Under the pieces are notes generated by a model. The model did not search any database. It saw only the letters and a program-made list of their open reading frames with translations, and was not told the origin of the DNA. From assembly GCA_033032865.1 (NCBI GenBank), contig JAWHQI010000075.1, positions 4,464,001 through 4,528,000 of the forward strand: a DNA stretch of 64,000 nt. Direction: 5' to 3'. This DNA is from Dactylorhiza incarnata (lineage: Eukaryota > Streptophyta > Magnoliopsida > Asparagales > Orchidaceae). Below are positions 1,350 to 60,471 of this stretch, piece after piece. Each line of letters opens with the position of its first letter. Position 1 is the first letter of the stretch. Made by a program: the position numbers and the translations under genes.

Positions 1350-2690
1350 TGTTGTTTATGGAACTATCACCTAGAGGGGGGGGGGGGGGGAGAATAAGTG
1401 TTGTGACTATTTTGAAATTTAAACCATAAATAAAATAATGTAAAACACAGTAAAGATCACAACCACAGAACACAACACATAGAGACTCCAGATTTATAGT
1501 GGTTCCCCAAGACAATGTGTCTTAAGTACTCCACTATCCCTTGCGCCCATCTAGCAATATGCCAGAGTCAACGAACACCACCAAAAACCCAAATCTCCTC
1601 CACAAATCCTACAGCTAAGGCACAACATGCCCTACAACTCAGATCCTCTCAAGATCCTATCTCAGGTTCCTGGAACCCTACAGCTCAGGCATAACAAGCC
1701 TTACAGCTCAGATAAACAATAGAGCCTACCTCAGGTTCTCATAGAACCCTATAAATCATATTCAAAGGAGTCCTACAGTGAATGAAAAGGTTTACAAATT
1801 TGAATAACACTTCACATAATAAGGAATCAAAATATCCTGAAGAGTCTTCTGGGGCCTGAAGCAGACTACCTCTGGATCTAAAGAGTAAGCCTTGAAGAAC
1901 TATTCACTGATGCACAAAAGGTTCTCTTTGATCCAATTCTTCAATCTGGAACAAGCCTATCAGTCGATGATGCCTGACTGAACCTTAGAGAACTGTGTGC
2001 AATGTTCTCAAAAATTTTCTTTCTTCTGAAAGCCGTTACACTATTCAGATTCGATGGATCCTTTTTCTCTCTCTGAGTTCTGTCATTTTTAGGGCATACA
2101 TATTATCCATATATCACAAGAATGTCTAAGGGTCTATTCCAAGGTCTATTAAATTTCAGAAGCCCATTCCTAAATAGCATCCTCTAATTGGACCCTTAGA
2201 CAGCGACATTAAATGCAGACAGCGCATTTCAAAAAATCTCGGTCTGTCTTGACGATATGAACATTATCTCCATGACAGAACTTGTCGTCTCAACGATCCA
2301 TCTTGGACTTAGTCAACTCTTCAACTCTTTTGAGATCTTCCCCTCGAATAGGTATCTCGACGATATGAACACTATCTCGACGACAGAACTTGTCATCTCA
2401 GCGACATGTTCACTTAAGACAAAATATGGTCTTCTCGTCGATATCATCATGATACTCTTGACGATATCTAATAGCATACAGGACGACATAGCTCCTTCAC
2501 TACAATATTTGTACTTATTCCACGAGAATTCTATACTATTTCAACGATATGTCTATACTTTCTCAATGATATGTCCAATCCTTTCTTAACGATAAGTCTA
2601 ATCCTTCTCAATGATTTTGGACTTAGAGATATATGAGAATTACTGGACATACTATCTATACAATGCATTCATATATAAGATATAATATCA
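1350..2690 (-). repeat. 5' LTR of element A
   Basis: The right edge of the primer site defines the LTR 3' end (plus-strand TGTTGTTTATGG). Inside are a 15-base G run (1376-1390) and a U5/R zone (1490-1760) of imperfect repeats around CTGAGGTAGG or its complement. Further upstream in the sense of the element (2230-2610) is a U3 zone rich in GACGATAT. The outer end near 2690 is a guess based on where element B coding similarity resumes. Confidence 0.6.
2230..2610 (-). repeat. U3 motif array of element A (GACGATAT type)
   Basis: GACGATATGAAC, TCGATATCATC, GACGATATC and related near-palindromes recur through this stretch. A longer unit ending in GACAGAACTTGTC occurs twice (about 2250-2300 and 2355-2405). 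The same core is repeated in the LTR of element B. Confidence 0.6.
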
Positions 2691-2706
2691 AATACATAGT
2701 GCTTTT

Positions 2707-3111
2707 ATGATTGACCTGAGCACTTCTTCAAATCAGGAACATTACTGGGCAATGTTGCCAACAAAAAGTAATACAAATGATACTACAAGTGAGGGGGAGC
2801 ATTACACTGAGCTCCTTGCTCAAGTAGTAGGGATGATACATAAAATCACTAAGGTTGAGGATGCTACCCACAATGGTGTAGCAGTCCAAAAGAGTCTGTC
2901 TGAAGCTCCTAAGGATAAGAGCCCAAAAAAGTGTGCCGTCAACTCAAGTAAATCTACAAAAGCACCTATCTGAAGAAGCCCCAAAGGGGAGAGGAGATCA
3001 ATGATTAAGACTAGTGTGGCTACTTCTCCTGCCACATCTGAAGCATCTACTGCTGCTGCACAAGGCAAAGGGAAGGAGACTATTCTACTCCCTGCTCTTA
3101 TCATCAGTTAA
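2707..3111 (+). pseudogene. 3' terminal reading frame of Copia element B
   Basis: This frame runs 88 codons, meets a TGA at 2971-2973, and then stays open in the same frame for about 45 more codons. The product is Ser/Thr/Lys/Ala-rich with no catalytic motif. It lies directly upstream of the polypurine tract and 3' LTR of element B, where some plant Copia elements keep a low-complexity tail or an extra ORF. I cannot name a function. Its 5' continuation is interrupted by element A. Confidence 0.4.
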
Positions 3112-3158
3112 TTTTCATTAGTGCAATTTATCATTGACTGGGTTATGACTTCTTCAAA

Positions 3159-3169
3159 TAGGGGGAGAT
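3159..3169 (+). other. Polypurine tract of element B
   Basis: The tract TAGGGGGAGAT lies immediately before the LTR start TGTTGGG. It is the usual plus-strand primer of Copia elements and shows that the following LTR is a 3' LTR in plus orientation. Confidence 0.75.
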
Positions 3170-3339
3170 TGTTGGGAACACTACCTAATATGCTTCAGAT
3201 TAGGAGAAGTCCCTATGTCATTGATAAGTACATTTTATATTTGAAACTTATTTGATGTGACATGAGCAGGTGAGAACATGATATATCTTATATGAAATGT
3301 TTGGAGATCAAGCATAAATGTGTAAGTTAAATATCATCG

Positions 3340-3715
3340 TGTATATAACACTCACATGACGATATCGTTTTGATCACTCACAGAAGGCAGTAGAAAAAGT
3401 CAGTCAACAATTGACTTGATAATAAGAAGAACATGACGATATCATCGTGTCAACAAGGTACACACGACGATATCGTTGTAAGAACTCAAAGAAAGTATGT
3501 TAAGGCATATATCTTCGTGTCAACAAGGTACACACAAGGATATCATTGTGAACTCAACGAAAGTATGCTAAGGCATATATCGTTGTGTCAACAAGGTACA
3601 CACGATGATATCATTGTGAGGACTCAATGAAAGACTCGTGAAAGTCAGCTAAGGCATATATCGTCGTGTCAACAAGCTTCACACAATGATATCGTTGCGA
3701 GGACTCAAGAAAATC
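3340..3715 (+). repeat. U3 tandem array of element B (GACGATATCGTC dyads)
   Basis: About four imperfect units of roughly 70-80 bp contain the repeated block GTCAACAAGGTACACACGAC and the palindrome-like core GACGATATCGTC. The CAACAAGG anchor occurs near 3451, 3521, 3589 and 3670. More units follow the element C insertion at 17790-17960. The TATA-like box of this LTR is further downstream at 18091. Confidence 0.75.
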
Positions 3716-3720
3716 ATCTT
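3716..3720. repeat. Target site duplication of element C (left)
   Basis: ATCTT immediately precedes the 5' LTR of C and is repeated exactly at 17780-17784 after its 3' LTR. This shows a single clean integration into the LTR of B. Confidence 0.9.
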
Positions 3721-3842
3721 TGTACAACTCTCATATTTGCCGAGCCGACGTGGCCTAGCACATGTAAGGGGCAAGCAAACCAAACCATCGGAGATCGTTA
3801 AGAACTGAAAAAAGAAAGCCTGGGGGGGGCAAGCTCTCTTGG

Positions 3843-4140
3843 GCGAGTGGACCATCGGTCAACTCGCCCGGGCAAGGGGGCGAGTGGACCATCGGTCCAC
3901 TCGCCCGGGCGAGGGGGCGAGTGGACCGTCGGTCTACTAGCCCGGGCAAGGGGGCGAGTGGACCGTCGGTACACTCGCCCGGGTCTGGGGGCGAGTGGAC
4001 CATCGGTCCACTCGCCCAGGCAAGGGGGAGAGTGGACTCAAGGTACACTCGCCCCCAGGCCAGAAGGCGAGTGGACCTATGGTCCACTCGCACAGGGTGA
4101 CCGGGGCAGCTAGGCGAGTGGCCCTATGGTCCACTCGCCC
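3843..4140 (+). repeat. U3 array of 37-bp inverted-repeat units in the 5' LTR of C
   Basis: Eight units start near 3844, 3881, 3918, 3955, 3992, 4029, 4068 and 4114. Each is a near-perfect dyad, GGCGAGTGGACC, three bases, GGTCCACTCGCC, joined by a CGGGCAAGGG-like linker. A diverged ninth dyad lies at 4188-4221. The array ends about 80-160 bp upstream of the TATA box. The changes in some arms break the symmetry. Confidence 0.9.
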
Positions 4141-4303
4141 TGCACGGATGGTGGACCTCGATCCATCCATCTAACCCCCGGCGAGGAGGGGGAGTGGACA
4201 TCTCGAGCTCCACTCGCCCCCCTCATGTTTCGGTCATTCGGGTTGGTTGTTGGGCTGCGGATAGTGGATTTTTGGCTATCCGCAGCCCAGTTTTTGGGAA
4301 GTC

Positions 4304-4310
4304 TATAAAT
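4304..4310 (+). promoter_or_regulatory. TATA box of the 5' LTR of C
   Basis: TATAAAT in the context GTCTATAAATAGAC lies downstream of the U3 dyad array. It is conserved in the 3' LTR near 17443. It is the likely core promoter for the element transcript. Confidence 0.7.
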
Positions 4311-4722
4311 AGACACCCATGGGCACCTTGGGAAGGGATGTTGATACCCCCCTCCCTCACGTGTGTGTTGTGATCAAACACTACCCTTCCCCTCCCCCTG
4401 TCATTGAACGTGGACGGTGAGGTGATCCTTAGTGCCCTCCAAGGTGCCCAGGCTCAGCATTGGCTTGGGAGGGGAAGTTCCTAGAGAGCTTCCGGGTATG
4501 TGGTGGGACCTCCACGATGCAGCTTAAGGGGTTCGTTTGTGGACTTAGAAGTTTTCCAAGGGTTAGGTTCTTCGGTTCTTAGTGACTGGTCAAGGGTCTA
4601 GCTCAGGTCAAGTAAGGGTTAGCTGCATCTCCCTTTCGAACGTCGAGACCAGTTCTCTGGTTTCAACATTTTGGTGCGGTGAGCGAGGAAGCAGCTAGTT
4701 CGGAAAGCCCTGAGTAAGTCTC

Positions 4723-5215: not shown

Positions 5216-5918
5216 TGTTGGATCGGTAGGCGCCCTTAGAGGGGGGGGGGGGGGGTGAATAAGGGTTTTAAAAACTTTTGATATATTTTGAATATTTTAG
5301 AAAAAGCTTTGATTATTAAACTAAAGAAGATCAAGACATATCAAGTGAAGTAAAAGTAAAGACATGATTTTATTAACTTGAGAAGCATGATTACAAAACT
5401 TGATCTCTTATCGAAGCTAGAAATCAAAGCTAATAGAAAAAGACTCCTTTTTATTTTCTATCCCGACTCGCTTCCCCACGAACCGGTGGCCCTAGCCTAT
5501 CCTCCCCGGATTCGGCCTCAAGCCGCTCTAGCCAACCCTCCCCCGGATATGGCCTCGAGCACCCCCTAGACCTAGCCTAGATCTAGTCACACGAGGAGAA
5601 TTCCATCCCTAAGTCCTACCCAGACCTAGTCGCCAACACGAGGCGAATTCACTAACGATTACAAGAATAAAGATGTGAAAAAAAACATCAATAATAAAAA
5701 CTCCCTCTAAGAACTTCTGAAGTTGGAGACGTTTGACCGCTGTAGTATAAGCGTTGTTGAAGCGGTCGCCGGTCGGATGAAGCGTGAAGAAGTCCTCCTT
5801 CAGAAATTCTCTCTAAGCTTTTGGTGGGAGTATCTCTCTAAACCTTCCTCTATATGTTGTGGCACGAAGCTCTGGAGTTTAGGGTTATAGAAGAGTAAGG
5901 AAGACGGAGCCAATGGGT

Positions 5919-5930
5919 CCTTTTTATAGC
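5919..5930 (-). promoter_or_regulatory. TATA box of the left LTR of D
   Basis: The minus-strand sequence GGCTATAAAAAGG lies directly downstream of the dyad-rich U3 block. The same box is at about 12209-12220 in the other LTR, which as the 5' LTR would drive the element transcript. Confidence 0.65.
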
Positions 5931-6195
5931 CTCAGCGCTAGCGCCTGCGCTAGTGCTACCGTCGGCGCTATCCCATATTAAGTAATATTTTGCGCGCGAG
6001 AATCTTTAATCCGGGGAAACAATTTCGCCATTCCTCTTGTGCTCCGCGCTACCGCCAGCGCTGGTAGATACCGCCTGCACTAGCTGCTACCACCTACGTT
6101 AGCTGACCGCCTGGCGCTAGCACCTTCTAAAATTATTTCCGAGATTTTCTCAAGTCCGCGCTAGCGCTAGTGCTAGCGCCGGTGCTAGCGGGCAT
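5930..6195 (-). repeat. U3 motif cluster of D (GCGCTAGCGC type)
   Basis: Many variants of GCGCTAGCGC, AGCGCTAGCGCT and CGCCTGCGCTAG recur, several of them perfect palindromes. The cluster lies immediately upstream of the TATA box in element sense. The partner copy is at 12220-12505. Confidence 0.85.
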
Positions 6196-6349
6196 GTTGG
6201 AATTTTGGCTTCAAATTATGGCGCAGCATTCTTATGTTATCCTTGAGTCATGTGGACTTGTTATCCTGCACACTTAAACACACAAGATCAAATACACATA
6301 GGATTTGTTATTCTCAAACCTAGAAGATGCGGAAGACCATGTTCCAACA

Positions 6350-11509: not shown

Positions 11510-12658
11510 TGTTGGATCGGTAGGCGCCCTTAGAGGGGGGGTGAATAAGGGTTTTAAAAACTTTTGATATATTTTGAATATTTTAGAAAAAGCTTTGATT
11601 ATTAAACTAAAGAAGATCAAGACATATCAAGTGAAGTAAAAGTAAAGACATGATTTTATTAACTTGAGAAGCATGATTACAAAACTTGATCTCTTATCGA
11701 AGCTAGAAATCAAAGCTAATAGAAAAAGACTCCTTTTTATTTTCTATCCCGACTCGCTTCCCCACGAACCGGTGGCCCTAGCCTATCCTCCACGGATTCG
11801 GCCTCAAGCCGCTATAGCCAACCCTCCCCCGGATATGGCCTCGAGCACCCACTAGACCTAGCCTAGATCTAGTCGCCAACACGAGGTGAATTTCAGCCCT
11901 AAGTCCTACCCCGACCTAGTCGCCAACACGAGGCGAATTCACTAACGATTACAAGAATAAAGATGTTAAAAAAAACACCAATAATAAAAACTCCCTCTTA
12001 GAACTTCTGAAGTTGGAGACGTTGGACCGCTGTAGTATAAGCGTTGTTGAAGCGGTCGCCGGTCGGATGAAGCGTGAAGAAGTCCTCCTTCAGAAATTCT
12101 CTCTAAGATTTTGCTGGGAGTATCTCTCTGAACCTTCCTCTATATGCTGTGGCACGAAGCTCTGGAGTTTAGGGTTATAGAAGAGTAAGGAAGACGGAGC
12201 CAATGGTTTCTTTTTATAGCCTCAGCGCTAGCGTCTGCGCTAGTGCTACCGCCGGCGCTATCCCATATTAAGTAATATTTTGGGCGCGAGAAACTTTAAT
12301 ACATGGAAACAATTTCGCCATTCCTCTTGTGCTCCGCGCTACCACCAGCGCTAGTAGATACCGCCTGCGCTAGCTGCTACCACCTGCGTTAGCTGCTACC
12401 ACCTGCGTTAGCTGACCACCTGGTGCTAGCACCTTCTAAAATTGTTTTCGAGATTTTCTCAAGTCCGCGCTAGCGCTAGCGCTAGCGCCGGTCCTAGCGG
12501 GCATGTTGGAATTTTGGCTTCAAATTTTGGCGCAACATTCTTATGTTATCCTTGAGTCATGTGGACTTGTTATCCTTCACACTTAAACACACAAGATCAA
12601 ATACACATAGGATTTGTTATTCTCAAACCTAGGAGATGCGGAAGACCATTTTCCAACA
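11510..12658 (-). repeat. 5' LTR of element D (right end)
   Basis: This 1149-bp LTR is nearly identical to 5216-6349. U3 dyads lie at 12220-12505 and a TATA box at 12209-12220. Small differences include an extra copy of a GCTGCTACCACCTGCGTTA unit near 12380-12410. Confidence 0.93.
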
Positions 12659-16864: not shown

Positions 16865-17779
16865 TGTACAACCCTCATATTTACCGAATCGACGTGGCCT
16901 AGCACATGTAAGGGGCAAGCGGACCAAACAATCGGAGATTGTAAGAACCGAAAAAAGAAAGCCCTGGGGGGCAAGCTCTCTTGGGCGAGTGGACAATTGG
17001 TCCACTCGCCCGGGCAAGGGGGCGAGTAGACCATTGGTCCACTCGCCCGGGCTAGGGGTGAGGGGGCGAGTGGACCATCGGTCCACTCGCCCGGGCAAGG
17101 GTGCGAGTGGACCGTCGGTCCACTCGCCCGGGCCTGGGGATGAGTGGACCATCGGTCCACTCGCCCAGGCAAGGGGGCGAGTGGACCCAAGGTCCACTCG
17201 CCCCCATGCCAGCAGGCGAGTGGACCTATGGTCCACTCGCCCGGGCAGCTGGGCGAGTGGCCCTATGGTCCACTCGCCCAGCACGGATGGTGGACCCCGA
17301 TCCATCCATCTGACCCCCGGTGAGGAGGAGGAGTGGACATCTCGAGCTACACTCGCCCCCCTCATGTTTCGATCGTTCGGGTTGGTTGTTGGGCTGCGGA
17401 TAGTGGATTTTTGGCTATCCGCAGACCAATTTTTGGGAAGTCTATAAATATACCCCTATGGGCACCTTGGGAAGGGATTTTGATACCCCCTCCCTCGCGT
17501 GTGTGTTGTGAGCAAGCACTATGGATGGTGAGGTGATCCTTAGTGCCCTCCAAGGTGCCCAGGCTCAGCATTGGCTTGGGAGAGGAAGTTCCTAGAGAGC
17601 TTTTGGGTATGTGGTGGGACCTCCACGCTGCAGCTTAAGGGGTTCATTTGTGGACTTAGAAGTTTTCCAATGGTTAGTTTCTTCGGTTCTTAGTGACTGG
17701 TCAAGGGTCTAGCTCAGGTCAAGTAAGGGTTAGCTGCATCTCCCTTTCGAACGTCGAGACCAGTTCTCTGGTTTCAACA
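16865..17779 (+). repeat. 3' LTR of element C
   Basis: This 915-bp partner of 3721-4668 also ends TTTCAACA and is followed by TSD ATCTT. It carries the same 37-bp dyad array (16984-17285) and a TATA box near 17443. It lacks a short segment present in the 5' LTR around 4370-4400. Confidence 0.93.
16984..17285 (+). repeat. U3 array of 37-bp dyads in the 3' LTR of C
   Basis: This array has about eight GGCGAGTGGACC/GGTCCACTCGCC units, in the same order as in the 5' LTR. One linker has an extra insertion (around 17050-17066). Confidence 0.88.
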
Positions 17780-17784: not shown

Positions 17785-19164
17785 AGGCTTCTATCATCGT
17801 GACAACATGCTTCACACAACAATATCGTTATGAGAGATCAAGAAAATCTATTTATGTACTTATCGTCGTGACAACAAGGTGCAAACGACGTTATCGTTGT
17901 AAGAACTCAAGAGAAGACCGTTGAATATAACATTGTGATTAACCAACTTCAAACAACGATATCATTTTTTCAAGCTCAGAAGGCGGTATTTCAAATCGAC
18001 GGAGTCGACAAAAGCAAATATCAAATCAATCATGTCTGAAAAGTGGTCTGATATAAAACTTTTTAGATTCTTGACCGTTAGAAGAATCAGAGCTATAAAA
18101 TGATAAGAAAGGTTTGGCTAACCCTAATCTTTGATTATATATTGTTGAGAAATCAAAAAGAGTAAACCTTGTCTACCGCCAAAACGCAATAGAACAATAA
18201 AAAGCAAGTCTTTTCAAAGAAAGAAGAAGAAGAAGAAAAAGAAGAAGCCAAGCTTCAATAAGAAATCTCACTCTTGAGAGCAAGAAGACTTCTTAATATA
18301 AGAAGTTTAACACTGATCCTGGAAACAAAGCTCATCTATTGAAGATCCAGTGTTGTTGCTAAAGAGATGGCTTTCTTTTCAAAAAGACCTAAGAAGATTC
18401 AAGCTGCTTAAAGTTATATCTTTTAGAGTCTATATGATGTAAACCTTGTTCTAATCTCTAATTGTAAGATCTTTTTGAGATCTGAGGTAGGGCTATGCTG
18501 ACAGCCTTAGTGTAGGGCTTGTGAGAAGGCCTGAGTGTAGGCCTTTGCTAAAAGTCTAAGGTAGGGTCTGTGAAGACATGAGGTAGGATTTCTGAGGAAA
18601 TCTGAGTTGTAGGATCCTTGCTAGGGATCTAAGTTGTAGGAGTGTCTGCACTCTGAGGTATGGTTGCTGCTGGCACCTGAGGTAGGATTCTATGATGGAA
18701 TCTAAGGTAGGGGACTTGCTGAGTTCCTGAGTTATAAGATCAGAATATCTGAGTTTTTCGAGGAGTTGGCCTAGCCTAGCACACTGCTAGATAGGTGAAG
18801 GGGGATAGTGGAGTACCCATCATCTGGGGAACCAATATAAACAACTGTATGCTTTTTTGTGCTTTTTTATTTTACATTCTCTGCACTAGATTAGTCAACA
18901 ACATAAAAGAGACTAAAATATTTTTGAAACGCCTATTACCCCCCCCCCCCCCCCCCCCTTTAGGTTACTAGACTACTGATCAAACTTTCAATGTCTTTAT
19001 TTGTTCAATAAAATTGATTTGGTTTTCATATCTTGCAATTTACTTTTGATCCAATCTATTTCTTATATAATATCAAAAGTTTTCATTGCTAATACAAATG
19101 TTTCTAAAACTCTCATTCACCCCCCCCCCCCCCCCCCCCTCTAAGGGCGCCTTAAGATCCAACA
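17785..19164 (+). repeat. 3' LTR of element B, second part
   Basis: The GACGATATCGTT-type array continues to about 17960. A TATA-like GCTATAAAATG lies at 18091-18101. It is followed by a zone of imperfect repeats around CTGAGGTAGG (18480-18780) and the GTGGAGTACCC / GGGGAACC segment. Two long C runs follow (18939-18958, 19120-19139). The end CCAACA at 19164 mirrors the start TGTTGG. The last 170 bp also resemble the LTR ends of D, so an alternative end near 18991 cannot be excluded. Confidence 0.65.
18480..18780 (+). repeat. Imperfect CTGAGGTAGG repeats in the LTR of B
   Basis: Short units containing TCTGAGGTAGG or TGAGTTGTAGG, each beside a small inverted repeat, recur about every 25-35 bases. 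The complementary strand of element A's LTR (1600-1760) holds the same kind of repeat downstream of the promoter. Confidence 0.6.
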
Positions 19165-19620: not shown

Positions 19621-20752
19621 TGTCTAATATGGAAGATACTATTAAAAAATTTGAGGTCTGGAGTTGAAGTAAAAAATGCGGAACACTTCACAAACTTTCC
19701 ACAAGTGTAGCAACACAATGACAATGGGAAGACCGAATAGTGCTTTGACATTAACTATCTCTTTACAATTTGAGGTATACATGGCGAGACATGATTCATA
19801 AGAATCACGGACGAGAGAAGCACAAAATACAAAAAACTACAAGCTGCTGACAACCTGACAAACTGAGATCGCCAGACCGCACGAACAGACAAGCCGTGCA
19901 GTTAACTCCTGAGACCGCGCGAACAGAGCAGACCGCACCTGTCAGCCAGCAACCACAGACTGCTCGACCTGCTGCTTTATTCAACTCCTGAAAGATAACC
20001 TGTTCACACTTCAGACCGCCAGACCAAGAGGTCGCCCGATCACTGAAGCTACCTGCGAACACTTGACCAAGAAACTGTTTCCTGCTGCAGACCGCAACTC
20101 AAGACCGTCTGATCAACTGAGTTCGCTGAATAGTCCAAAAACACCTAAACATAGTCCACCCAGACAGATCGCTGCCGGTATGGTTAATTCAAAGCTAGAA
20201 GATGGGAGAATGCTGACGGTAACTGCTAGCCGCTAACAGTTCTTAGTTACAAATGATGGGCCCAATAACCCTATTTATAGGCAAGAGGACGGATGTCGTC
20301 ACCGCCGAAAGAGGGATACAATAACCGCCCATCAACCCGCATGCGGTCTCGCAAAGCAGACAACCTGAGCTCAGCATAGCCGACAACTCCCTTATTAAAC
20401 CAAACGGTTATATACAAACCGCCCGGAACAACGGTCTCCCAAAATAGACCGCCCAGTCTTTATTGCAAAAGCAAAACACTTCTTCAGTAACCAAGACTGA
20501 CTAGAACAAGTTAACAGACCGCCCGGTCACTGCAAGAAGGCAGACCTACTTGAACATCTGGCCGACTTGAAAAAGTTGCCAGAACAACCCGCGCAAGCCG
20601 CCCGAACACTTTGCGGTGTCCCAGATCGGACCTCCCAGAACAGATCACCTGAGACGAACCAACCAGAACACCAGCGCAGACTATGCGGTCACTGCGGTCT
20701 CTAATCTGCAGACCGCCCAGCACCTTTCCACTTCCACTTCAAAAATTTAACA
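19621..20752 (-). repeat. 3' LTR of element E
   Basis: The LTR start is fixed by the polypurine tract (minus-strand TGTTAAATTTTTGAAG at 20752). The far end is approximate; 19621 (TG) is a candidate only. AGACCGC / GCGGTCT and CCGCNCGAAC motifs recur throughout (19855-20130 and 20300-20720). A minus-strand CTATAAATAG at 20271-20280 is a likely TATA box. Confidence 0.65.
20300..20720 (-). repeat. U3 motif cluster of E (AGACCGC / GCGGTCT)
   Basis: AGACCGCCC, GCGGTCTC and CCGCCCGAACA repeat irregularly upstream of the TATA box. The opposite-handed copies create many potential short hairpins. A second cluster lies downstream at 19855-20130. Confidence 0.7.
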
Positions 20753-22197: not shown

Positions 22198-22215
22198 GTC
22201 CCAAGTCTCATTTTT

Positions 22216-23411: not shown

Positions 23412-23703
23412 TGTTGAAACCAATTTCTTGGTCTCTTGTGAAGCTCGGGCCTCAACAAGTTGAGGGGCAGCTAGCCCTTACTGATCCCTCAGAAAGAGCA
23501 GACTGGAGATTCAGAACTAGACTTAGACCTTAGTCGCAGCGAGGAGGTCCCACCACAAACCCGGAAGATCGTTGAGTGCTTCCCCTCCCAAGCCAAAGAT
23601 GAGACTGGGCACCTTGGAGAGCTAGAGAGCTAAGCCAAAGTAACCTAGGGAGGAAGAAGCTCAGAGTCTGAGATTGGAATCCTCTCCAAGGTGCCCTTCA
23701 AGG

Positions 23704-23713
23704 TCTATTTATA
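23704..23713 (-). promoter_or_regulatory. TATA box of the F LTR
   Basis: Minus-strand CTATAAATAG lies at about the same distance from the LTR 3' end as in element C. Confidence 0.65.
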
Positions 23714-23874
23714 GTTTTTTGTTCATGGTCTGCTAATAGCGAAATTCCGCCTTTTGGTTTTACTAAACGCACCCCAATTTGGTCTGCTAACAGCCAAACT
23801 CCGCTGTTTGGAGGGGCTAATGGCGAACCACCAGGGGCAGAGGGGTAATTTTGCCTCCTCAGCCTATGGGCAAG

Positions 23875-39180: not shown

Positions 39181-41373
39181 TGTAACACCCCAAAGATCGT
39201 GGATCAGCGAGGTAGGCGGAATGGTAGTATGGCGCTCGGGATAGGCTCAAGATTCCAGATCAGATCAATGCGCACGACCATTGTCCTCTTCGCGCACGAC
39301 CAGTGATCGTGCGCCAATGATCGTGCGTAACCCGCAAAGAATCGGAGTTCTGTCTCGGCTTATGCGCACGACCATTGTCCTCTTCGCGCACGACCAGTGA
39401 TCGTGCGCCAGCGATCGTGCGTTAATTCAGAAGAGAATCGAGTTCTGTCTCGGACAGTGCGCACGACCTTTTCCCTCTTCGCGCACGACCAGTGATCGTG
39501 CGCCAGCGATCGTGCGCCCTGTTTATTCTGTTCCGCGATTTTGAGCGGAGAAGAAGATCGGACCGTCCAAATCTTTTGGAAATTGATCCAACGGCTAGGT
39601 TTAGTTGCGGGAGACTATTAGGGCTGATGAGAGGGGGTTAAACCTCATATTCTCTAAGCCATTCTCTCTCCAAACCCTAGAGAAAGAAGGAGGAGCCAAG
39701 GAAGAAGAAGGGAGATTCCGCCATTAACGGAGCTCCGGAGCTCCGATTCGCGAGCCGTTTCCAGATTTGGAGAGTGCAGCCCGGTGCGGTCGTTTCTCTC
39801 CGTGTAGAATCTCGGATCTATGGCGAAAAAGAACGCTCCTAGGGTAACGATTTCTTCTCCCGTTGTTTGGACTTGTCTTTTGTCCTCTCCTTCATTTCTC
39901 TATGCTTGCATGAGGAATCCCTTTCACCAAATGGGTGAAGTGTAGGATTTCCTCAAGTTCCTCGGAACTCCGGGTCGATTGTGTCCATCCCCAGCATATT
40001 GCATGTAGAAAATCCGGTAGTCGTGCGGATTTAGGCATTGTGTGTGAAGCCTATTCGTGGCCGTGAGCCCGAATCGGTGATGCTTGATTTGCGACGTTGC
40101 ATTTAGGTTAAGCCTAGAATGCGTGCCGGAGAATGACTCTGTGATATAAGCGATAGTATTGCGGGATTTAAGCGTAGGCATCTTGTGAAGATCCTAACGG
40201 AAGCCCCATGCTTTGCGAGTGGTTGAATGCAAACCTTCACCACTAGAATTGTTGAGGAGTGGTCTTGTACCTCCTGTTTGGTTACGTATAAAGCCCTAAC
40301 GATCCCTCATGCCCTCCGGCCGAAAGGCGGAGTCGGGTCTTGAGTCGTTACAAAGTAAACTTTTAATGCTTGGGTGTTGTAAATTATGTTTTGTGTAGCA
40401 CTAGCGAGTGCTAAACCCTTACGGGCCGAGGTGATGTCATACCCGCATCGTGTGTTCAATCGATGACAAGAGCACGGGAATTGGCTGAACTGAACCCGTT
40501 TCCAGGCGTGGCGGTAGGGGGATTTATCTCTTGTAAACCCGAACGACCTTGGGAGAGGTTGGGAAGGGCGTCTTGCCTAGACCGACCAAAAGCTCTTTTC
40601 TATCTAGAGTTTCCGGACTCATGATGGTGTTGGTGCTCGGGAAGAAGTACCTTTGGTGCATGCCTTGTGAGCATGGAGCGTGCGGTTGTGTGTACCCACG
40701 TTTGTGATGAATTGATGTTGTTAGCCTCATGTGGTTGTTTAGGCGGTTGTGGGAACCTTCGGGTGAACCCAACCAACATCATGTGCATACCTAGGTTCCT
40801 TTCTTTTGATGCTCAACCTAGAAGATTGATTGTGCTTGAAACCTCACCTTGTGTAGTTGCACTTTCTTTATATTAGTACTTGTGCTAGTATGGCTTGCTT
40901 GCAGGGTAGAATCTCCGCCACCCCGGGAAAGGGGTGGGGTCGTTATAATTTGGTCAGCTTTGCTGACCGTTACCTTGTTTGCCACCGCTTGGTGGAATGT
41001 TCTTATGCAGGTGCAGGTGAGCCTAGTGGAAAATAGCGGGCGGTGGCCCTTATGCTGAGTTGGCCCTCGAAGGCCAGCCTCTTTTCTGTTTTCCTGGTAT
41101 TGCCGGCCTGCGTGCCGATGTATGTTTGGAGTTTTTAGCACATTTGGTAAATATAAGGTCTTAAGGCCGTAACTCTATATTTTGGTTTCATTCCTATGAT
41201 AGTGGACAGTTCTAATTGAAATGGTTTAATTAATGCTTCCGCTTACGTTTTGTACTCTCGTTAGTTGTTACTTTTCTGGTTATCACCTTTTAACTCCTAG
41301 CTAGTGTGGTTTGTATGGCGTGGGGTCCCGGCCGGACCTGCTGTTATACTCTTCGTACTGGCAGGGTGTTACA
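39181..41373 (+). repeat. 3' LTR of element H
   Basis: This 2193-bp LTR is nearly identical to 32563-34741. It has one more TCGTGCGC unit near 39500. It is followed by TSD GTTTT. Confidence 0.93.
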
Positions 41374-43985: not shown

Positions 43986-45197
43986 TGTGAAATTTTCCGT
44001 AGATCTAGGAGTGAGCAGGAATCGTACAACTTAAAGTTATAGCCAACAACCAGAAGCACATGAAGCAAAGCAATCTTTATTGATAATAGCAGAAATCTTC
44101 ATTACAGGGCGATGTATACATGGAGAGACATGATTTCGCCAGTACACAAACAAAAGGAAAGATACAAGCTGAAGAAAGATAACTGGCGGTCTGATCACAG
44201 AAGACCGCCAAACCGCGCGGTCTGAATGTTCGCGCGACTAGAAAGGGAGACCGCGGGAACAGACTGACGACGGCCTGAACAACACCACTGAAGTCGCGAC
44301 CTCCCGAACTCCACTGATTCTCTCGAACTCCAGCAACCCACACTGCAAGCTGCGAGACCGCCCGAACACCTTATAAGAAGAGGTGATCGTTGCTGTCCGC
44401 ACAATCCGCAGAAGCTGTACAAGGAAAGTTCAATTAGCAAACCGGCCGGTCACAAAAACGAGACCGCAAGAACTACGCGCGAACTCAGCTTACACTTGGT
44501 GCGATTATTTTGCTGCTACAGTGGCTCCTATTTATTGGCGTGCGACCTGATCCAGTCACAACCCTATGAGATAGAGTCACCGCCCTGATCGCGTGACCAA
44601 GACCGGTCAACCCGCACGATCAGCAGAAGATCGCTCTGCGCTTTGTGAGATCGCCGACTTCAAACCAACCAGGAGATCGCCACTCCTCCAAGAAGCCCCG
44701 CGATCATGACAACTCGCAACATCATGATGCCCACCACCAGTGTTCGCCAATATGAGACCTCCCCCAGAGACCGCAAACACAGCCAAGTCGACTAGGGCAA
44801 CAGCCCGCCAAGTCGACCAAACACCAGTGACCACATATATGAGCAGATCGCCAAAGGACCAGCTATGCGAACACAAAAGAGGAGACCGGGCGACTAAAAA
44901 ATCCCTAGTCCACGAGCACCAACAAGAACCCGGACATCCACCAGACAGGACTGCCCCTTCCAGAACAAACACCTGTGCGGTCAACAGTTTAACCCGCACA
45001 GTACAGAACAGCTCGCCACGCAGTCTCACAAACCAGACTGCGCGGCCTCACCTCGGCAACCTTGAATAAAGAAAGGCGATCAGGCTACGGCTAGACCGAG
45101 CAAGTCAGACCGCACAGGAGACCGCAAGCTCGCGCGGTTAGACCAGACCGCGCGACCTCCTCCCAGACCGCCAACTTCCACTTCAAAATTTTTAACA
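43986..45197 (-). repeat. 5' LTR of the Copia half
   Basis: The LTR is about 1212 bp. On the plus strand it begins TGTGAAATTTTCC (43986; an alternative is 43988) and ends TTTTTAACA at 45197. AGACCGC, GCGCGGTC and CCGCNCGAAC motifs recur from 44190 to 45170. A minus-strand AATAAATAGG at about 44528-44537 is the likely TATA region, with most motifs upstream of it. Confidence 0.75.
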
Positions 45198-47522: not shown

Positions 47523-48866
47523 TGTTGGATCTTGAGGCTCCCTTATAGGGGGGTGAATAAGGGTTTTAAAAACTTTAAAGTTTAATATAAAACTTTTGAT
47601 ATTTTATTTGAATAAGAGTTAAATCAAGAGTAAAGAGATTGTAAATTGGAATAATGAAATCAATTTTATTCAACATGAAAAGGCATGATTATCATTTATA
47701 AAATTGATTATAAAATCTGATTTCTATGACGCTAGAAATCAAGGCGAATAATGAAAGACTCTTTCATTTTCTATACCGACTCGTATCCCCACGAACTGGT
47801 TAGCTTTAGTCGATCTCTCCCCAAATACGGCCTCAAGCCACTCTAGCCAATCTATCACCAGAAAGGCCTCGAGGACCCCCTAGATCTACTCCCTAGACCT
47901 AGTCGCCAATATGAGGTGAATTCCTCCCTAAGTCCTACCCAGACGTAGTCGCCAACACGAGGCGAATTCACAAACCGATTAAGAAGATGAAATAAAGGAC
48001 AAATACAAAATACAAATATAAAACTCCATATGAGGTAATCTGAAGGAGATGTCGAAGAATCGCTGAAGATCGTTGAAGTCCAAGCGTGCGTTCTACACGT
48101 TGAGTTAGCGTGTTGATCCAAGCCTCCTTTGATTCCTCCTTTTGAAATAAGAGTGGGAGATGTGTTGATCTTGAAATACGGCCCTCATAAAGTTTCTGAA
48201 GTGCTGGAATAGGGCTCTTGACAATCAGTAGTTGGAGAAGACAAAATCATCCAATATATAGACTTTGAGATAACGCCGCGCGTTGACCATGTATAGCAAC
48301 ATATTGATGGCTCGGATCTTTAGAAGAGGAAGGAGATTCTGCACTTTAGGAATTGTTCTATTTTAGGCAATACTAACGCCGACGTTAAGGCTAACGCGGG
48401 GCGTTGGGCAAATCATTCCTAAAGTTCCTCCTGCAATCACGGCTGCTTTCTCCTTGCCAAATTTGTCGACCGGATAGCGCCCAGCATTAAGACCTAACGC
48501 CTGGCGTTGAGTTCCTTCCTCACCATTTCGTCGAATGGCATCTTCGTCGAACGTCTCATTTCGTCGAACGAAGTTTCATTTCGTTGAACGCCACTCATTT
48601 CGTCGAACGGGCTTCTTCTTTTATCGAACAGAATTTCATCGAACGCCGTTTTCATCTAGCGCTAACGCCCAACGTTAAGCTTAACGTCTGGTGTTAAACA
48701 ACATTCAATCCTTCAGCTTGTGGTTAGTGTCAGACCATTGTTGCAGCAACCTGGTGTCATAACTGTCCAAACCTGCATGCTAAAAACACAATGGCAAACA
48801 AGATCAAATACAAGTAGTATTTGTTATTCTCAAATCAAAGGGATGCGGAAAAACCATGTTCCAACA
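47523..48866 (-). repeat. 3' LTR of element I
   Basis: This 1344-bp LTR runs TGTTGGATCTTGAGGC ... GTTCCAACA. It is related to the D LTR in U5 (for example TCCCCACGAACTGG, GGCCTCAAGCC-like words). U3 (48270-48700) has two motif types, TAACGCC/GGCGTTA and TTCGTCGAACG. A minus-strand TATATATTGG near 48253-48262 is the likely TATA box. Confidence 0.85.
48350..48700 (-). repeat. U3 motif cluster of I (TAACGCC/GGCGTTA and TTCGTCGAACG)
   Basis: GCTAACGCGGGGCGTT, CTAACGCCTGGCGTTGAG and TAACGTCTGGTGTTA flank a block (48520-48640) of ATTTCGTCGAACG repeats. The second core is the same as in G and J. Confidence 0.8.
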
Positions 48867-50632: not shown

Positions 50633-52479
50633 TGTAACACCCTACCAGTACAAATAATATAACAGTAGGTCCGGCCGGGATCCCACGCCATACTATACAC
50701 ACTAGCTAGGCATTAAAAGGTGATAATCAGAAAAGCACACAACTACACGAGAGTATAAAAAGCGTAAGCGGAAGCATTTGGATTAAACATCTTTTAGAAT
50801 TGTCCACTATCCCAGGAATGAAACAAATAGAGTTACGGCCTTAAGGCCTTACATGTATCAAATGTTTAGAAACTCCAAAAACATACATCGGCATGCAGGC
50901 CGGCAATACATGAAAAGCAGAAAAGAGGCTGGCTTCGAGGGCCAACACAGCAAAAGGGCCACCACCAGCTATTTCCTGCTAGGCTCACCTGCACCTGCAA
51001 CCAACATCCAATTAGAGGTAAACTAGGGTCAGTTATGAGCTGACCACAAACCACGTAATAATCCCCCCCGGCCCTCTAGCCGGCTTAGGGGCGTGTCACC
51101 GCTAACCTGCAAGCAAGCCGTACATGCAACATGTAATAATATAAAGAAAGTGCAAACTACACTACACAAGATGAGGTTTCAAGCACAATCAATCTTCTAG
51201 GTTGAGCATCAAGTAAAAGGGAACCTAGGTATGCACATGATGTTGGTTGGGTTCACCCGAAGGTTCCCCACAACTGCCTAAGCAATCGCATATGGCTAAC
51301 ATAACATCATTTCAAAACATCACAGACGCGGGTACTCACGACCACACGCTCCAAGCTCACAAGGCATGCAAACAAGGTTCTCTTTTGCGAGCACCAACGC
51401 CTCTCTAAGTTAGGTAACCTTAGGTGGGAATAAGAGCATCAGGCCTATCTAGGTAAACACCTTGTACGGCCTCTCCCATGATCAGACGGCTTTACAAGAG
51501 GTAACTTCCTCCTACCGATAGGAATGGAAATGGGTTCGGTTCAGACAATGCCCGTGCTCTTGTCATCGTGATCGAACGCACGATGTGGGGATGGCATCAC
51601 CTCGGCCCGTAAGGGTTTATCACTTGCAAGTGCTACACAAAACATAAGTTACGCACCTAATCCATTCACGAGGAGCTAGTCTTCACAAATAATTAACAAA
51701 GGAGGTACAAGTCACTCCACTTCAAATCGCGTGGTGAAGGTTTTCATTCCACCACTCTCAAGCATGAGGCTTTTGTTAGGAGCTCCAACAGCCGTCTAAT
51801 CTCAAGTCCCGCAATACGATAGCAAATATCACGGAGTTATTCTCCGGCACGCATTCTAGGCTTATCCTAAATGCAACGTCGCAATCCAAGCATCACCAAT
51901 CCGGGCTCACGGCCACGAATAAGCTTCACACAAAATGCCTAAATCCGCACGACTACCGGATTTCTAAATGCAATATGCCAGGGACGGACACAATCGACCC
52001 GGAGTTCCAAAGAACTTGAGGAAATCCTACACTTCACCCATTTGGTGAAAGGGATTCCTCTTGCAAGCATAGAAAAGGAATGAGAGGACAAAACACGGCC
52101 TAAGACTGGGAGGAAGGATCGTTACCCTTTGAGCTTTCTTCTTCGCCATAGATCTGAGATTTCGCTCGGATAGAAAGAACCGCAACGGGCTGCTCTTTCC
52201 AGATCTGAAAACAGCTCACGATTCGGAGCTCTGAAGCTCCGGCAATGGCAGAAAACGTCTCCTTCTTCTTCCTCGCTGTCGTTGTTTTTCTCTCGGCTTC
52301 CTTCTTTCGCAAACTTTGTGAGATAAAGTTTTAATCGTTAAAGAGGATATATATACTCCTCTGTACAAACTCTAAGATACCCCGGAAAGAAATCCCAACG
52401 CTTGGATTTAAAGCCCTGGATTAGACGACCATGATCAAGAAGTCACGGGTCTGCTATTTAAAAAAATCGTTGTGCTGAT

Positions 52480-53098
52480 ACTGCGTTCGACGAATCCTTT
52501 CATGATGCGCTCGACGAACAGCTTTGATTCTGCGTTCGACAAATTTCAGTAATGTTGCGTTCGACAAAGGTTATAAAGTTGCGTTCAACGAACAGCTAAT
52601 ATACTTGCGTTCGACGAACGGCTGAAATGCTGCGTTCAATGAACAACTAATAATCTGCGTTCGATAAACGGCTGCCTGCATTCGATGAATGGCTGCTAAA
52701 CCTGCGTTCGACGAACGACTGCCTACGTTTGACGAACGACTGAAAACCTGCGTTCGACGAACGGCTGCTAAACCTGCGTTCGACGAACGGCTGCCTGCGT
52801 TCGACGAACGGCTGAACACCTGCGTTCGACGAATAGCTGCTAAACCTGCATTCGATGAACGGCTGCCTGTGTTTGACGAACGGCGGCCTGCGTACAACGA
52901 ATGGCTGCTAAACCTATGTTCGACGAATGGCTGCCTGCGTTCGACGAACTGCTGCTAAACCTGCGTTCGATGAACGGCTGCCTGCGTTCGACGAACGACT
53001 GAAAACCTGCGTTCAACGAAGGGCTGCTAAACCTGTGTTCGATGAACGGCTGCCTGCGTTCGACGAATGACTGCCTGCGTTCGACGAACGGCGGCCTG
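52480..53098 (-). repeat. U3 array of J (TTCGACGAACG)
   Basis: About two dozen irregularly spaced copies of CTGCGTTCGACGAACGGCTG and variants lie about 20-45 bp apart. CGTTCGACGAACG is close to a perfect palindrome. The matching array in the other LTR is 59588-60230. Confidence 0.9.
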
Positions 53099-53139
53099 AA
53101 GGCATTTCTTGTTCCCGAGAACTGGCACTTCCTGCCCTT

Positions 53140-53325
53140 ACGATTTCTCGAGAAGTTTAATTTCTGCATATTTGATTTCTCGAGAAATCAATTCTCTGCT
53201 ATTTAAATTTCAGGAAGTATTTTCCTTCCCATTTGATTTCTCGAGAAGAATATTCCTAACTATTTGATTTCTCGAGAAATCAATCCTCCTGCCCTTATGA
53301 TTTCTTGAGAAATGCATTTCCGGAA
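53140..53325 (-). repeat. Second U3 dyad array of J (TTTCTCGAGAAA)
   Basis: TTTGATTTCTCGAGAAATCA and half copies occur five to six times about 35 bp apart. GATTTCTCGAGAAATC is a perfect 16-base palindrome. Between 53099 and 53140 is a single CCCGAGAACTGG variant. The partner is at 60265-60450. Confidence 0.9.
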
Positions 53326-53339
53326 TTTGGGGTGTTACA

Positions 53340-57726: not shown

Positions 57727-57740
57727 GTCCGATACCAAAT
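57727..57740 (-). other. Primer binding site of element J
   Basis: On the minus strand ATTTGGTATCGGAC follows the LTR end and is identical to the site in H. Confidence 0.8.
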
Positions 57741-59587
57741 TGTAACACCCTGCCAGTACAAATAATATAACAGTAGGTTCGGCCGGGACCCCACGCCATA
57801 CTATACACACTAGCTAGGCATTAAAAGGTGATAATCAGAAAAGTACACAACTACACGAGAGTAAAAAAGCGTAAGCGGAAGCATTTGGATTAAACATCTT
57901 TTAGAATTGTCCACTATCCCAGGAATGAAACAAATAGAGTTACGGCCTTAAGGCCTTACATGTATCAAATGTTTAGAAACTCCAAAAACATACATCGGCA
58001 CGCAGGCCGACAATTCATGAAAAGTAGAAAAGAGGCTGGCCTTCGAGGGCCAACACAGCAAAAGGGCCACCACCCGCTATTTCCCGCTAGGCTCACCTGC
58101 ACTTGCAACCAACATCCAATAAGAGGTAAACGAGGGTCAGCTATGAGCTGAACAAAAACCACGTAATGATCCCACCCCCGGCCATCTAGCTGGCTCACGG
58201 GCGTGTCACCGCTAACCTGCAAGCAAGCCGTACATGAAACATGTAATAATATAAAGAAAGTGCAAACTACACTACACAAGGTGAGGTTTCAAGCACAATC
58301 AATCTTCTAGGTTGAGCATCAAGTAAAAGGGAACCTAGGTATGCATATGATGTTGGTTGGGTTCACCCGAAGGTTCCCCACAACCGCCTAAGCAATCGCA
58401 TAAGGCTAACATAACATCATTTCAAAACATCACAGACGCGGGTACTCACGACCACACGCTCCAAGCTCACAAGGCATGCAAATAAGGTACTCTTTCGCGA
58501 GCACCAACGCCACTCTAAGTTAGGTAGCCTTAGGTGGGAATAAGAGCTTCAGGCCTATCTAGGTAAATACCTTGTACGGCCTCTCCCATGATCACACTGC
58601 TTTACAAGAGGTAACTTCCTCCTACCGATAAACATGGAAATGGGTTCGGTTCAGCCAATGCCCGTGCTCTTGTCATCGTGATCGAAAGCACGATGCGGGT
58701 ATGACATCACCTCGGCCCGTAAGGGTTTAGCACTTGCAAGTGATACACAAAACATAAGTTACGCACCTAATCCATTCACGAGGACCTAGGCATCACAAAT
58801 AATTAACAAAGGAGGTACAAGTCACTCCACTTTAAATCGCATGGTGAAGGTTTGCATTCCACCACTCTCAAGCATGGGGCTTTTGTTAGGAGCTCCAAAA
58901 GCCGTCTAATCTCAAGTCCCGCAATACGATAGCAAATCTCACGGAGTCATTCTCCGGCATGCATTCTAGGCTTATCCTAAATGCAACGTCGCAATCCAAG
59001 CATCACCGATCCGGGCTCACGACCACGAATAGGCTTCACACAAAATGCCTAAATCCACACGACTACCGAATTTCTAAATGCAATATGCCGGGGACGGTCA
59101 CAATCGACCTGGAGTTCCGAAGAACTAGAGGAAATCCTACACTTCACCCATTTGGTGAAAGGGATTCCTCAAGCAAGCATAGAAGAGGAATGAGAGGACA
59201 AAACACGTCCTAAGACTGGGAGGAAGGATCGTTACCCTTGGAGCTTTCTTCTTCGCCATAGATCTTAGATTTCACTCGGATAAAAAGAATCACAATGGGC
59301 TGCTCTTTCTAGATCTAAAAACGGCTCGCGATTCGGAGCTCCGAAGCTCCGGCAATGGCAGAAAACGTCTCCTTCTTCTTCCTCGCTGTCGCAGTTTTTC
59401 TCTCGGCTTCCTTCTTTCGCAAACTTTAAGAGATAAAGTTATAGGAGTTAAAGAGGATATATATACTCCTCTGTACAAACTCTAAGATACCCCAGAAAGA
59501 AATCCCAACTCTTGGATTTAAAGCCCTGGATTAGACGACCATGATCAAGAAGTCACAGGTCTGCTATTTAAAAAAATCGTTGTATTG

Positions 59588-60230
59588 ATACTGCGTTCGA
59601 CGAATCCTTTCAAGCTGCGCTCGACGAACAACTTTGATTCTGTGTTCGACGAATTTCAGTAAAGCTGCGTTCGACGAAGGTAATAAAGCTGCGTTCAATG
59701 AACAGCTAATATACCTGCGTCCGATGAACAGCTGAAATGCTGCGTTCGACGAATGGCTAATAATTTGCATTCGACGAATGGCTGCCTGTGTTTGACGAAT
59801 GGCTGCTAAACCTGCGTTCGACGAACGGCTGCCTGCGTTCGACGAACGGCTGCCTGCGTTCGATGAACGGCTGAAAACCTGTGTTCGACGAATGGATGCT
59901 AAACCTGCGTTCGACGAACGGCTGCCTACATTCGACGAACCACTGAAAACCTGCGTTCGGCGAATGACTGCTAAACCTACGATCGACGAACGGCTGCCTG
60001 CGTTCGATGAACAGCGGCCTGCGTTCGACGAACGGCTGCTAAACCTGCGTTTGACGAACGGCTGCCTGCGTTCGACGAACGGCGGCCTGCATTCGACGAA
60101 CTACTGCTAAAGCTGCGTTCGACAAACGACTTACTGCGTTCGACGAACGGCTGAAAACCTGCGTTCGACGAACGACTGCTAAACCTACGTTCGACGAACG
60201 CCTGCCTGCGTTCGACAAACGGCGGCCTGA
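59588..60230 (-). repeat. U3 array of J in the 5' LTR (TTCGACGAACG)
   Basis: The motif is the same as at 52480-53098 but the arrangement is rearranged, with several units gained, lost or altered relative to the partner. Confidence 0.9.
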
Positions 60231-60264
60231 AGGCATTTCTTGTTTCCCGAGAACTGGCATTGCC

Positions 60265-60450
60265 TGCCCATACGATTTCTCGAGAAGTTTAATTTTTGCC
60301 TATTTGATTTCTCGAGAAATCAATTCTCTGTTATTTAAATTTCGAGAAGTATTTTCCTGCCCATTTGATTTCTCGAGAAGAATATTTTTATCTATTTGAT
60401 TTCTCGAGAAATCAATCCTCCTGCCCTTTTGATTTCTCGAGAAATGCATT
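60265..60450 (-). repeat. Second U3 dyad array in the 5' LTR of J
   Basis: TTTCTCGAGAAA palindromes recur, as in the partner LTR at 53140-53325. Confidence 0.9.
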
Positions 60451-60471
60451 TCCGGAATTTGGGGTGTTACA

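What the first reader, a model, noticed from the sequence alone, without database searches (positions are those of the whole stretch)
1350..60471. Family-specific CpG-rich palindrome arrays in the U3 of nearly every LTR family
Seen directly: nine or ten LTRs from Copia, Tat and chromovirus families each carry an array of short dyad-symmetric motifs, and where a TATA box is visible the array lies mainly upstream of it. The motifs differ by family: A/B GACGATATCGTC; C GGCGAGTGGACC/GGTCCACTCGCC; D GCGCTAGCGC; E AGACCGC/GCGGTCT; F CTCGCGAG; G and I TTCGTCGAACG; H GCGCACGA/TCGTGCGC; J TTCGACGAACG and TTTCTCGAGAAA. Tobacco Tnt1 is known to have palindromic and tandem U3 boxes, but the same design in unrelated lineages with different motifs suggests a genome-wide process. 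Candidates are co-opted binding sites for dyad-binding factors, hairpins in read-through RNA, or a mutational mechanism that builds palindromes. Which one is inference.
Basis: partly seen in the sequence, partly recalled or inferred. Interest (0 to 1): 0.78.

Follow-up and report, generated by a model that had tools for sequence, protein, structure and literature searches.

The report
Mirror-image switches in jumping-gene promoters
Several unrelated jumping genes in this stretch of plant DNA carry rows of short mirror-symmetric sequences just upstream of their start sites; they look like docking sites for paired regulatory proteins, a design already published for one plant group of such elements and seen here in others too.

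Summary
The window is a nest of plant LTR retrotransposons, probably from an orchid. Dyads exceed shuffles strongly in U3 of six of eleven LTRs (B, C, D, E2, H, J), weakly or not in A, E, F, G, I. The A/B motif as written has no exact copy, and E/E2 boxes lie on both sides of the TATA-like box assigned by eye. Related LTRs (C/F, D/I, H/J) align in U5 but not in the array.

Best reading: arrays of binding sites for a dimeric host factor, grown largely by whole-unit duplication. Comparing the two LTRs of one element separates changes made before insertion from those after. Before insertion the arms hardly vary (C arms 2/208 against centre 10/24; J core 2/225 against flanks 13/175); after insertion arms and surroundings decay alike. 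Compensatory changes are not in excess. The core TTCG-W-CGAA recurs in G, I and J.

The general design is published: palindromic CpG-rich boxes upstream of TATA in Sireviruses (PMC2829016). New here are clear Ty3/gypsy cases, the shared core and the before/after test. Genome-wide extent was not testable.

The parts
1350..2763 (-). LTR A (Copia gag beside it); array region about 2220-2620 with CTCGACGATAT-like repeats
   Evidence: termini and repeats read; gag_2 match below cut-off in 917-1327; dyads not enriched (z 1.3); TCGACGA 7-mer enriched
3170..3720 (+). LTR B, first part (U3 with 68-bp array, dyad ATATCATCGTGT-N11-ACACGACGATAT); AGGGGGAGATTG at 3160-3171; LTR continues at 17785
   Evidence: z 5.7, both parts; P 0.010
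17785..18990 (+). LTR B, second part (rest of U3 to about 18088, TATA-like box near 18092, then R-U5; 3' end approximate)
   Evidence: similarity of the two parts
3721..4668 (+). LTR C, 5' copy; array 3841-4140 of eight 29-bp dyads GGGCGAGTGGACC-N3-GGTCCACTCGCCC; TATAAATA about 4304; TSD ATCTT at 3716-3720 and 17780-17784
   Evidence: (z 11.2)
16865..17779 (+). LTR C, 3' copy; array 16983-17279
   Evidence: (z 12.5)
5216..6349 (-). LTR D (Sirevirus-like), left copy; GCGCTAGCGC / TAGCGC boxes 5935-6190 beside a TATA-like box (5921-5928); TSD GTGCA
   Evidence: (z 3.2)
11510..12658 (-). LTR D, right copy; boxes 12225-12490
   Evidence: (z 6.2)
19680..20752 (-). LTR E (Copia; left end approximate); AGACCGC/GCGGTCT boxes on both sides of the TATA-like box near 20270
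   Evidence: positions; RVT_2 in 21538-22215; dyads not enriched (z 0.5)
23412..24145 (-). LTR F (related to C); CTCGCGAG-like boxes 23891-24062; TATA-like box about 23706
   Evidence: 84% to C over 87 bp; z 1.3
26583..28589 (-). LTR G, apparently a solo LTR, TSD GGCTC; TTCGTCGAACG-type array 28010-28425
   Evidence: (z -1.0)
32563..34741 (+). LTR H, 5' copy (chromovirus); array 32652-32886 (GCGCACGACCA-G-TGATCGTGCGC); TSD GTTTT
   Evidence: (z 4.6)
39181..41373 (+). LTR H, 3' copy; array 39270-39518
   Evidence: z 7.1; P 0.017
43986..45197 (-). LTR E2 (Copia gag at 43460-43939; left end approximate); AGACCGC/GCGGTCT boxes
   Evidence: (z 6.2)
47523..48866 (-). LTR I (Sirevirus-like, related to D); TAACGCC..GGCGTTA and TTCGTCGAACG boxes 48270-48700
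   Evidence: (z 2.6)
50633..53339 (-). LTR J, left copy (related to H); TTCGACGAA array 52481-53095 and TTTCTCGAGAA array 53142-53315; TSD TATAG
   Evidence: (z 12.7)
57741..60471 (-). LTR J, right copy; arrays 59591-60225 and 60274-60446
   Evidence: (z 16.1)

Best explanation
The arrays are clusters of dimer-type protein binding sites (enhancers) upstream of the LTR promoter. A dyad-binding host transcription factor docks on each palindrome, and many copies raise expression or give it a particular trigger. Sites multiply by duplication of repeat units, so arrays change quickly while the body of the element stays alike. While the family is active selection keeps the arms; once a copy is inserted and presumably silenced the arms decay like anything else, with CpG loss. 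Shown here: dyad excess, unit-length gains and losses, constraint on arms before but not after insertion in two elements, a core shared by otherwise unlike LTRs.
For: Dyad excess in U3 of B, C, D, E2, H, J. In C, variants present in both LTRs (before insertion) fall in 2 of 208 arm cells against 10 of 24 centre cells (P 1e-9), private ones in 14/208 against 3/24 (P 0.40); in J shared variants in the 9-bp core TTCGACGAA 2/225, flanks 13/175 (P 8e-4), outer CG pairs 10/100; private 26/225, 24/175, 22/100. The core constrained in J recurs in LTRs G and I, which give no element-sense alignment with J at E <= 1e-3. The 7-mer TCGACGA is enriched in A, G, I and J; a 7-mer enriched in three or more lineages arises in 71 of 5000 CpG-matched draws. 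The 11-mer TTCGTCGAACG lies on the other element strand in J than in G and I, as an orientation-free site may. Indels between the two LTRs of one element include five of array-unit length: 21, 21, 21 (J), 14 (H), 19 (D).
Against: No binding, expression or methylation data. A, E, F, G and I have little or no dyad excess. E/E2 boxes lie also downstream of the assigned TATA-like box. TATA-like boxes were read by eye. G and J share letters beyond the dyad, which suggests common origin of that array, so they may not be independent. The two array indels in C (7 and 10) are not unit-length. RNA structure is strong in C and raised in J, H, B. In the before/after test units are related by duplication, so one old change can be counted more than once (6 of the 10 shared centre changes in C are the same triplet in two neighbouring units) and the P values are too small; the consensus came from the same data. 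Arm-to-arm conversion before insertion cannot be excluded. Motifs were not matched to any transcription factor library.
Confidence: 0.6

Rival explanations
1. The palindromes act as RNA hairpins in the 3' end of the genomic RNA (U3 precedes R there) or in read-through RNA, either for 3' end function or as templates for small RNAs by which the host silences the element, as proposed for maize Sireviruses.
For: U3 arrays fold more stably than 30 shuffles in C (z -21.0), J (-7.0), J2 (-6.5), H (-6.1), B (-5.5), D (-3.6), E (-3.1), E2 (-2.6); six R-U5 controls range from -2.5 to 0.1. Palindrome-rich LTR regions are small-RNA hotspots in maize Sireviruses (PMC10760457 and PMC5311732, passages).
Against: Arrays of G, F and I fold no better than shuffles (z 1.1, 0.0, -1.3); single units of G/I and CTCGCGAG give no fold, those of D, J1, J2, I only -2.9 to -5.0 kcal/mol. 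Double arm changes are not in clear excess. In J the outer CG pairs, which would stabilise the stem, vary before insertion (10/100 shared variants).
Confidence: 0.2
2. The sites are read by an element-encoded DNA-binding anti-silencing protein that co-evolves with its own motif array, as VANC proteins do with VANDAL transposons.
For: Family-specific, fast-changing tandem motif arrays in non-coding parts resemble VANC targets, which form tandem repeats that vary between related elements (PMC5735166, passages). Arrays differ between related LTRs here.
Against: In 32 different ORFs scanned (two of them frames within arrays) the Pfam matches above cut-off are retrotransposon domains and DUF4219, the latter in a Copia gag ORF; but several ORFs, among them those of C, D, F and I, have no match above cut-off, so an unknown DNA-binding protein is possible. 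A core shared by three lineages argues for a shared, thus host, reader. The VANC21 motif YAGTATTAY is not a palindrome.
Confidence: 0.08
3. The palindromes are by-products of a mutational mechanism (slippage or template switching at hairpins in reverse transcription or replication), without function.
For: Unit-length indels show that slippage or unequal exchange acts on arrays; palindromes can provoke template switching (general knowledge). In J, 4 of the 5 double arm changes are complementary.
Against: Tandem growth alone does not give dyads: 0 of 8 tandem rows outside LTRs have a dyad unit. Double arm changes are close to independence: J 5 seen, 3.6 expected; C 0 and 0.35; D 2 and 1.2; J2 1 and 0.64; H 0 and 0; the four complementary ones in J are all G-C to A-T in CpG context, as double CpG loss gives. 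Arms constrained before insertion only. Same core in otherwise unlike LTRs.
Confidence: 0.12

Closest known systems
Sirevirus repeated motifs (RM boxes), Bousios et al. 2010, PMC2829016 (abstract, sections 6, 9, 19 and passages read)
   Same: Palindromic boxes in high copy, CpG-rich, mostly in the upstream half of the LTR shortly before the TATA box; element-specific sequence; further copies in the internal region of some. D and I have the Sirevirus hallmark of several AGGGGGAG copies near the LTR (four each, 6352-6595 and 48869-49114). The E/E2 half-site CGGTC is that of the Osr10, Osr8 and Vitis boxes.
   Different: There the boxes are called Sirevirus-specific and absent from classic Copia elements; here they also occur in Ty3/gypsy LTRs (C/F, H/J) and in Copia LTRs E/E2, where one PPT octamer was seen beside LTR E (20753). 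Of the motifs here E/E2 carry the CGG-CCG halves; those of D, I, H and J do not.
[quoted passage not shown] 2016, paper not held; described in PMC10760457 and PMC5311732, passages)
   Same: Palindrome clusters in the regulatory LTR part, high variability, strong predicted RNA structure.
   Different: Maize Ty3 elements generally lacked such a structure peak (PMC10760457); here the Ty3/gypsy LTRs C and J have the highest dyad z.
Tnt1 U3 boxes of tobacco (recalled; passages: PMC2829016 names box I as symmetric, PMC3601003 the U3 tandem repeats)
   Same: Symmetric box and tandem repeats in U3, variable U3 among related subfamilies (recalled).
   Different: Fewer copies and a link to stress induction (both recalled); nothing is known of expression here.
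VANC target arrays of VANDAL transposons (PMC5735166, passages)
   Same: Family-specific short motifs multiplied by tandem repeats, fast turnover among relatives.
   Different: DNA transposons (recalled), motif not palindromic, reader encoded by the element.

Membership tests
Sirevirus RM boxes (D, I) | Several identical AGGGGGAG PPT copies near the 3' LTR | tested here: met
   Four octamers each beside D and I; B has two (2792, 3160)
Sirevirus RM boxes (D, I) | Terminal PPT followed by AT and the TG of the LTR | tested here: inconclusive
   AGGGGGAGATTG exact for I (48865) and B (3160); D has TT instead of AT
Sirevirus RM boxes (D, I) | Palindromic boxes in high copy (8 or more per element) upstream of TATA | tested here: inconclusive
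   D: 11 and 10 matches with up to 2 mismatches in its two U3, 7 and 5 with up to 1; I: U3 dyad z 2.6, TTCGTCGAACG 6 times with up to 1 mismatch at 48527-48645
Sirevirus RM boxes (D, I) | CGG-CCG core signature | tested here: not met
   D GCGCTAGCGC, I TAACGCC..GGCGTTA by reading; one of 13 published RMs (Tnd-1) lacks the core too. D and I are therefore called Sirevirus-like only
Sirevirus RM boxes (D, I) | Pol of Sirevirus type | tested here: inconclusive
   One ORF each of D and I scanned, no Pfam match above cut-off; they may be non-autonomous
Sirevirus RM boxes (C, F, H, J) | Member of Ty1/copia | tested here: not met
   H and J: RVT_1, RT_RNaseH, SH3_Tf2-1, Chromo below cut-off in H. F: rve in 31690-32247, RVT_1 and RVT_3 in 41304-43123, assigned to F from the nesting; C by LTR similarity to F. 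They may work like RM boxes but are not members
VANC-type target array | Element-encoded DNA-binding anti-silencing protein | tested here: inconclusive
   No such Pfam match in 32 ORFs; ORFs without family remain
Transcription factor site array | Bound by a factor and needed for LTR transcription | not testable with these tools
   Needs binding and reporter assays

The most novel reading that the evidence does not exclude
One host dimeric factor that reads TTCG-W-CGAA is exploited by LTRs of both superfamilies (I Sirevirus-like, G tentatively Copia, J chromovirus), some by independent gain and some (G and J) by exchange of an array module between families; the CpG in every half-site lets the array also sense or resist methylation, so palindrome arrays would be a general promoter design of plant LTRs, not a Sirevirus peculiarity.
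Probability: 0.22. Interest if true: 0.75.

Novelty: new variant of a known kind. Interest (0 to 1): 0.45.

Why it matters
How plant LTR promoters gain their expression switches, and why U3 changes so fast, is an open matter. The comparison of changes shared by both LTRs with private ones separates selection during the active life of a family from decay afterwards, needs only sequence, and can be run on every genome. If the shared TTCGWCGAA core holds up, it names a concrete site for which the factor can be sought. It would also widen a design described for Sireviruses to Ty3/gypsy elements.

Tried and rejected
Genome-wide test: the genome search on the own genome was asked five times with the same request and never answered; so the refuter 'only these few LTRs' is open. 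Relatives by DNA: the pol ORF of H in viral contigs gave none; a two-copy TTCGTCGAACG pattern gave six viral contigs, not examined, presumed chance. The J array read as protein had no relative at E <= 0.001 among the 7994 candidates scored. The exact-palindrome measure with spacer up to 8 misses spaced dyads such as B, so an imperfect-dyad measure was used as well. Counting enriched 6-mers that are palindromic gave too few to test. Pol III B-box and heat-shock element readings of the cores were considered from memory and dropped for mismatch. The cross-lineage 7-mer test is modest (71 of 5000 draws) and some arrays may share descent, so the shared core rests more on the exact 11-mer in three LTRs.

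Full report
What the window is. The 64 kb are nested LTR retrotransposons. Copies with target site duplications: C (TSD ATCTT) nested in LTR B, D (GTGCA) in C, solo LTR G (GGCTC) and H (GTTTT) in F, J (TATAG) in I (read). H and J are Ty3/gypsy with gag, RVT_1, RNase H, integrase and SH3_Tf2-1 domains and a chromodomain match below cut-off in H, so probably chromoviruses. F, read as spanning G and H, has integrase at 31690-32247 and RT with an RVT_3 RNase H at 41304-43123 on the minus strand, as Tat elements do (the label is from general knowledge); C shares its termini and 84% over 87 bp. E has Copia RT, E2 Copia gag, A a Copia gag match below cut-off. D and I carry four AGGGGGAG octamers each near the LTR, the Sirevirus hallmark of PMC2829016. 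Among the 120 listed relatives of the H pol ORF the highest identities are to the orchid Platanthera zijinensis (76 and 71%), although the best score goes to a Tanacetum protein of 51% identity; an orchid host is inference.

Observation. Exact motif copies were counted; the A/B motif has none and F has one. With a measure that allows mismatches and spacers up to 15, U3 of B, C, D, E2, H and J is far above dinucleotide shuffles, U3 of A, E, F, G and I is not, or weakly. R-U5 is mostly at shuffle level, with I (4.0) and J (4.4) as exceptions, and some internal regions are raised too (up to 4.0, few shuffles); U3 exceeds R-U5 in 7 of 10 LTRs, P 0.03. Tandem rows outside LTRs do not have a dyad unit (0 of 8), rows in U3 of B, C, H and J do, rows in U3 of A, D, G and I do not, and one of four rows in R-U5 does. 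So the pattern is real in about half of the LTRs, Copia and Ty3/gypsy both, and it is mainly a U3 feature, but not one of nearly every LTR.

Turnover. Related LTRs align in U5 and partly at the ends, not in the array: H/J 79-85% from position 505 of H on, D/I 74% plus the first 72 bp, C/F 87 bp (element sense, E <= 1e-3). Yet half-sites persist: ACTCGC 15 times in C and 3 times in F (about 0.2 expected each), CGGTC 8 and 10 times in E and E2 (0.9 and 1.6), TAGCGC 12 times in D and the variant TAACGC 5 times in I (0.7 and 0.3). Of the indels between the two LTRs of one element five have array-unit length (21, 21, 21 in J; 14 in H; 19 in D), while the two array indels of C (7 and 10) do not.

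Selection test. Differences shared by both LTRs of an element arose before insertion, private ones after. C, 8 unit pairs: arms 2 shared and 14 private in 208 cells, centre 10 shared and 3 private in 24 (shared P 1e-9, private P 0.40, shared against private P 7e-4). J, 25 unit pairs: core TTCGACGAA 2 shared and 26 private in 225, flanks 13 and 24 in 175 (shared P 8e-4), outer CG 10 and 22 in 100. The core of J holds four CpG positions and should decay faster, so its constancy before insertion is conservative. Caveats: units are related by duplication, so old changes can be counted twice (in C, 6 of the 10 shared centre changes are one triplet in two neighbouring units) and the P values are too small; pairing of units in J came from a simple alignment; the consensus came from the same data. 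Only C and J could be tested this way.

Shared core. TTCGTCGAACG occurs exactly in G (2), I (3) and J (22); 20 shuffles of the window gave none, and with two mismatches there are 115 matches against 10.75. Its strand relative to the element differs between J and G/I. The arrays of G and J also share flanks (62-80% over 45-202 bp, E down to 9e-12), so they may have a common origin, whereas I gave no such alignment with G or J. The 7-mer scan finds TCGACGA in A, G, I and J; a 7-mer in three or more lineages appears in 71 of 5000 matched draws. That G is Copia rests on a weak likeness to A (68% over 88 bp).

Mechanism. Double arm changes are about as frequent as independence predicts (J 5 against 3.6, four of them complementary but all of the kind that double CpG loss gives; C 0 against 0.35; D 2 against 1.2), which gives no support to arm-to-arm copying or stem selection. 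RNA structure is strong for C, raised for J, H and B, and absent for F, G and I, so hairpins are unlikely to be the common denominator; short dyads with spacers of 0 or 1 suit a dimeric protein. The most economical account is an enhancer array for dyad-binding factors, kept by selection while the family transposes. Which factor, and whether it activates, is unknown.

Known and new. Palindromic, CpG-rich, multicopy boxes just upstream of TATA were described in 2010 for 13 Sireviruses and called absent from classic Copia elements (PMC2829016); later work links maize Sirevirus palindromes to small RNAs and states that cis-regions of several TE families are often arrays of sometimes palindromic repeats (PMC10760457, passages). 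So the kind is known. New here, as far as the searches named above show: clear Ty3/gypsy examples, a core shared across superfamilies, and the before/after-insertion constraint. The genome-wide claim stays untested because the genome search did not complete. Confidence in the best explanation was lowered slightly, from 0.62 to 0.60, and that of the mutational rival raised from 0.10 to 0.12, after the recount showed the non-independence of units and the four complementary changes in J.

Noticed in passing
9029-9052 and 60690-60715, 62035-62060: TAGCGC/GCGCTAGCGC boxes inside D and TAACGC/GCGTTA boxes inside the I internal region, far from any LTR array, like the linker copies of Sirevirus boxes.
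   Followed up: partly
30601-31357: Eight-copy 95-bp tandem repeat, 88% matches, in the internal region of F; no dyad unit.
   Followed up: partly
19060-19166: End of what looks like a further Sirevirus-like LTR (poly-C, CTCTAAGGGCGCC..GATCCAACA) directly after LTR B, apparently truncated.
   Followed up: no
16839-17444 and 59567-60100: The C and J arrays lie in stop-free frames of 202 and 178 codons; the J frame has no protein relatives and the C frame only a below-cut-off Pfam match; presumably an accident of the repeats.
   Followed up: partly
9950-11272 and 63077-63733: ORFs of D and I without Pfam match above cut-off, in AT-rich internal regions; D may be a non-autonomous Sirevirus relative.
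   Followed up: partly
1608-1751, 26901-27048 and about 18480-18760: A and G carry tandem repeats in R-U5 as well, and B shows similar loose repeats by eye; A/B (67% over 148 bp) and A/G (68% over 88 bp) are weakly alike there.
   Followed up: partly
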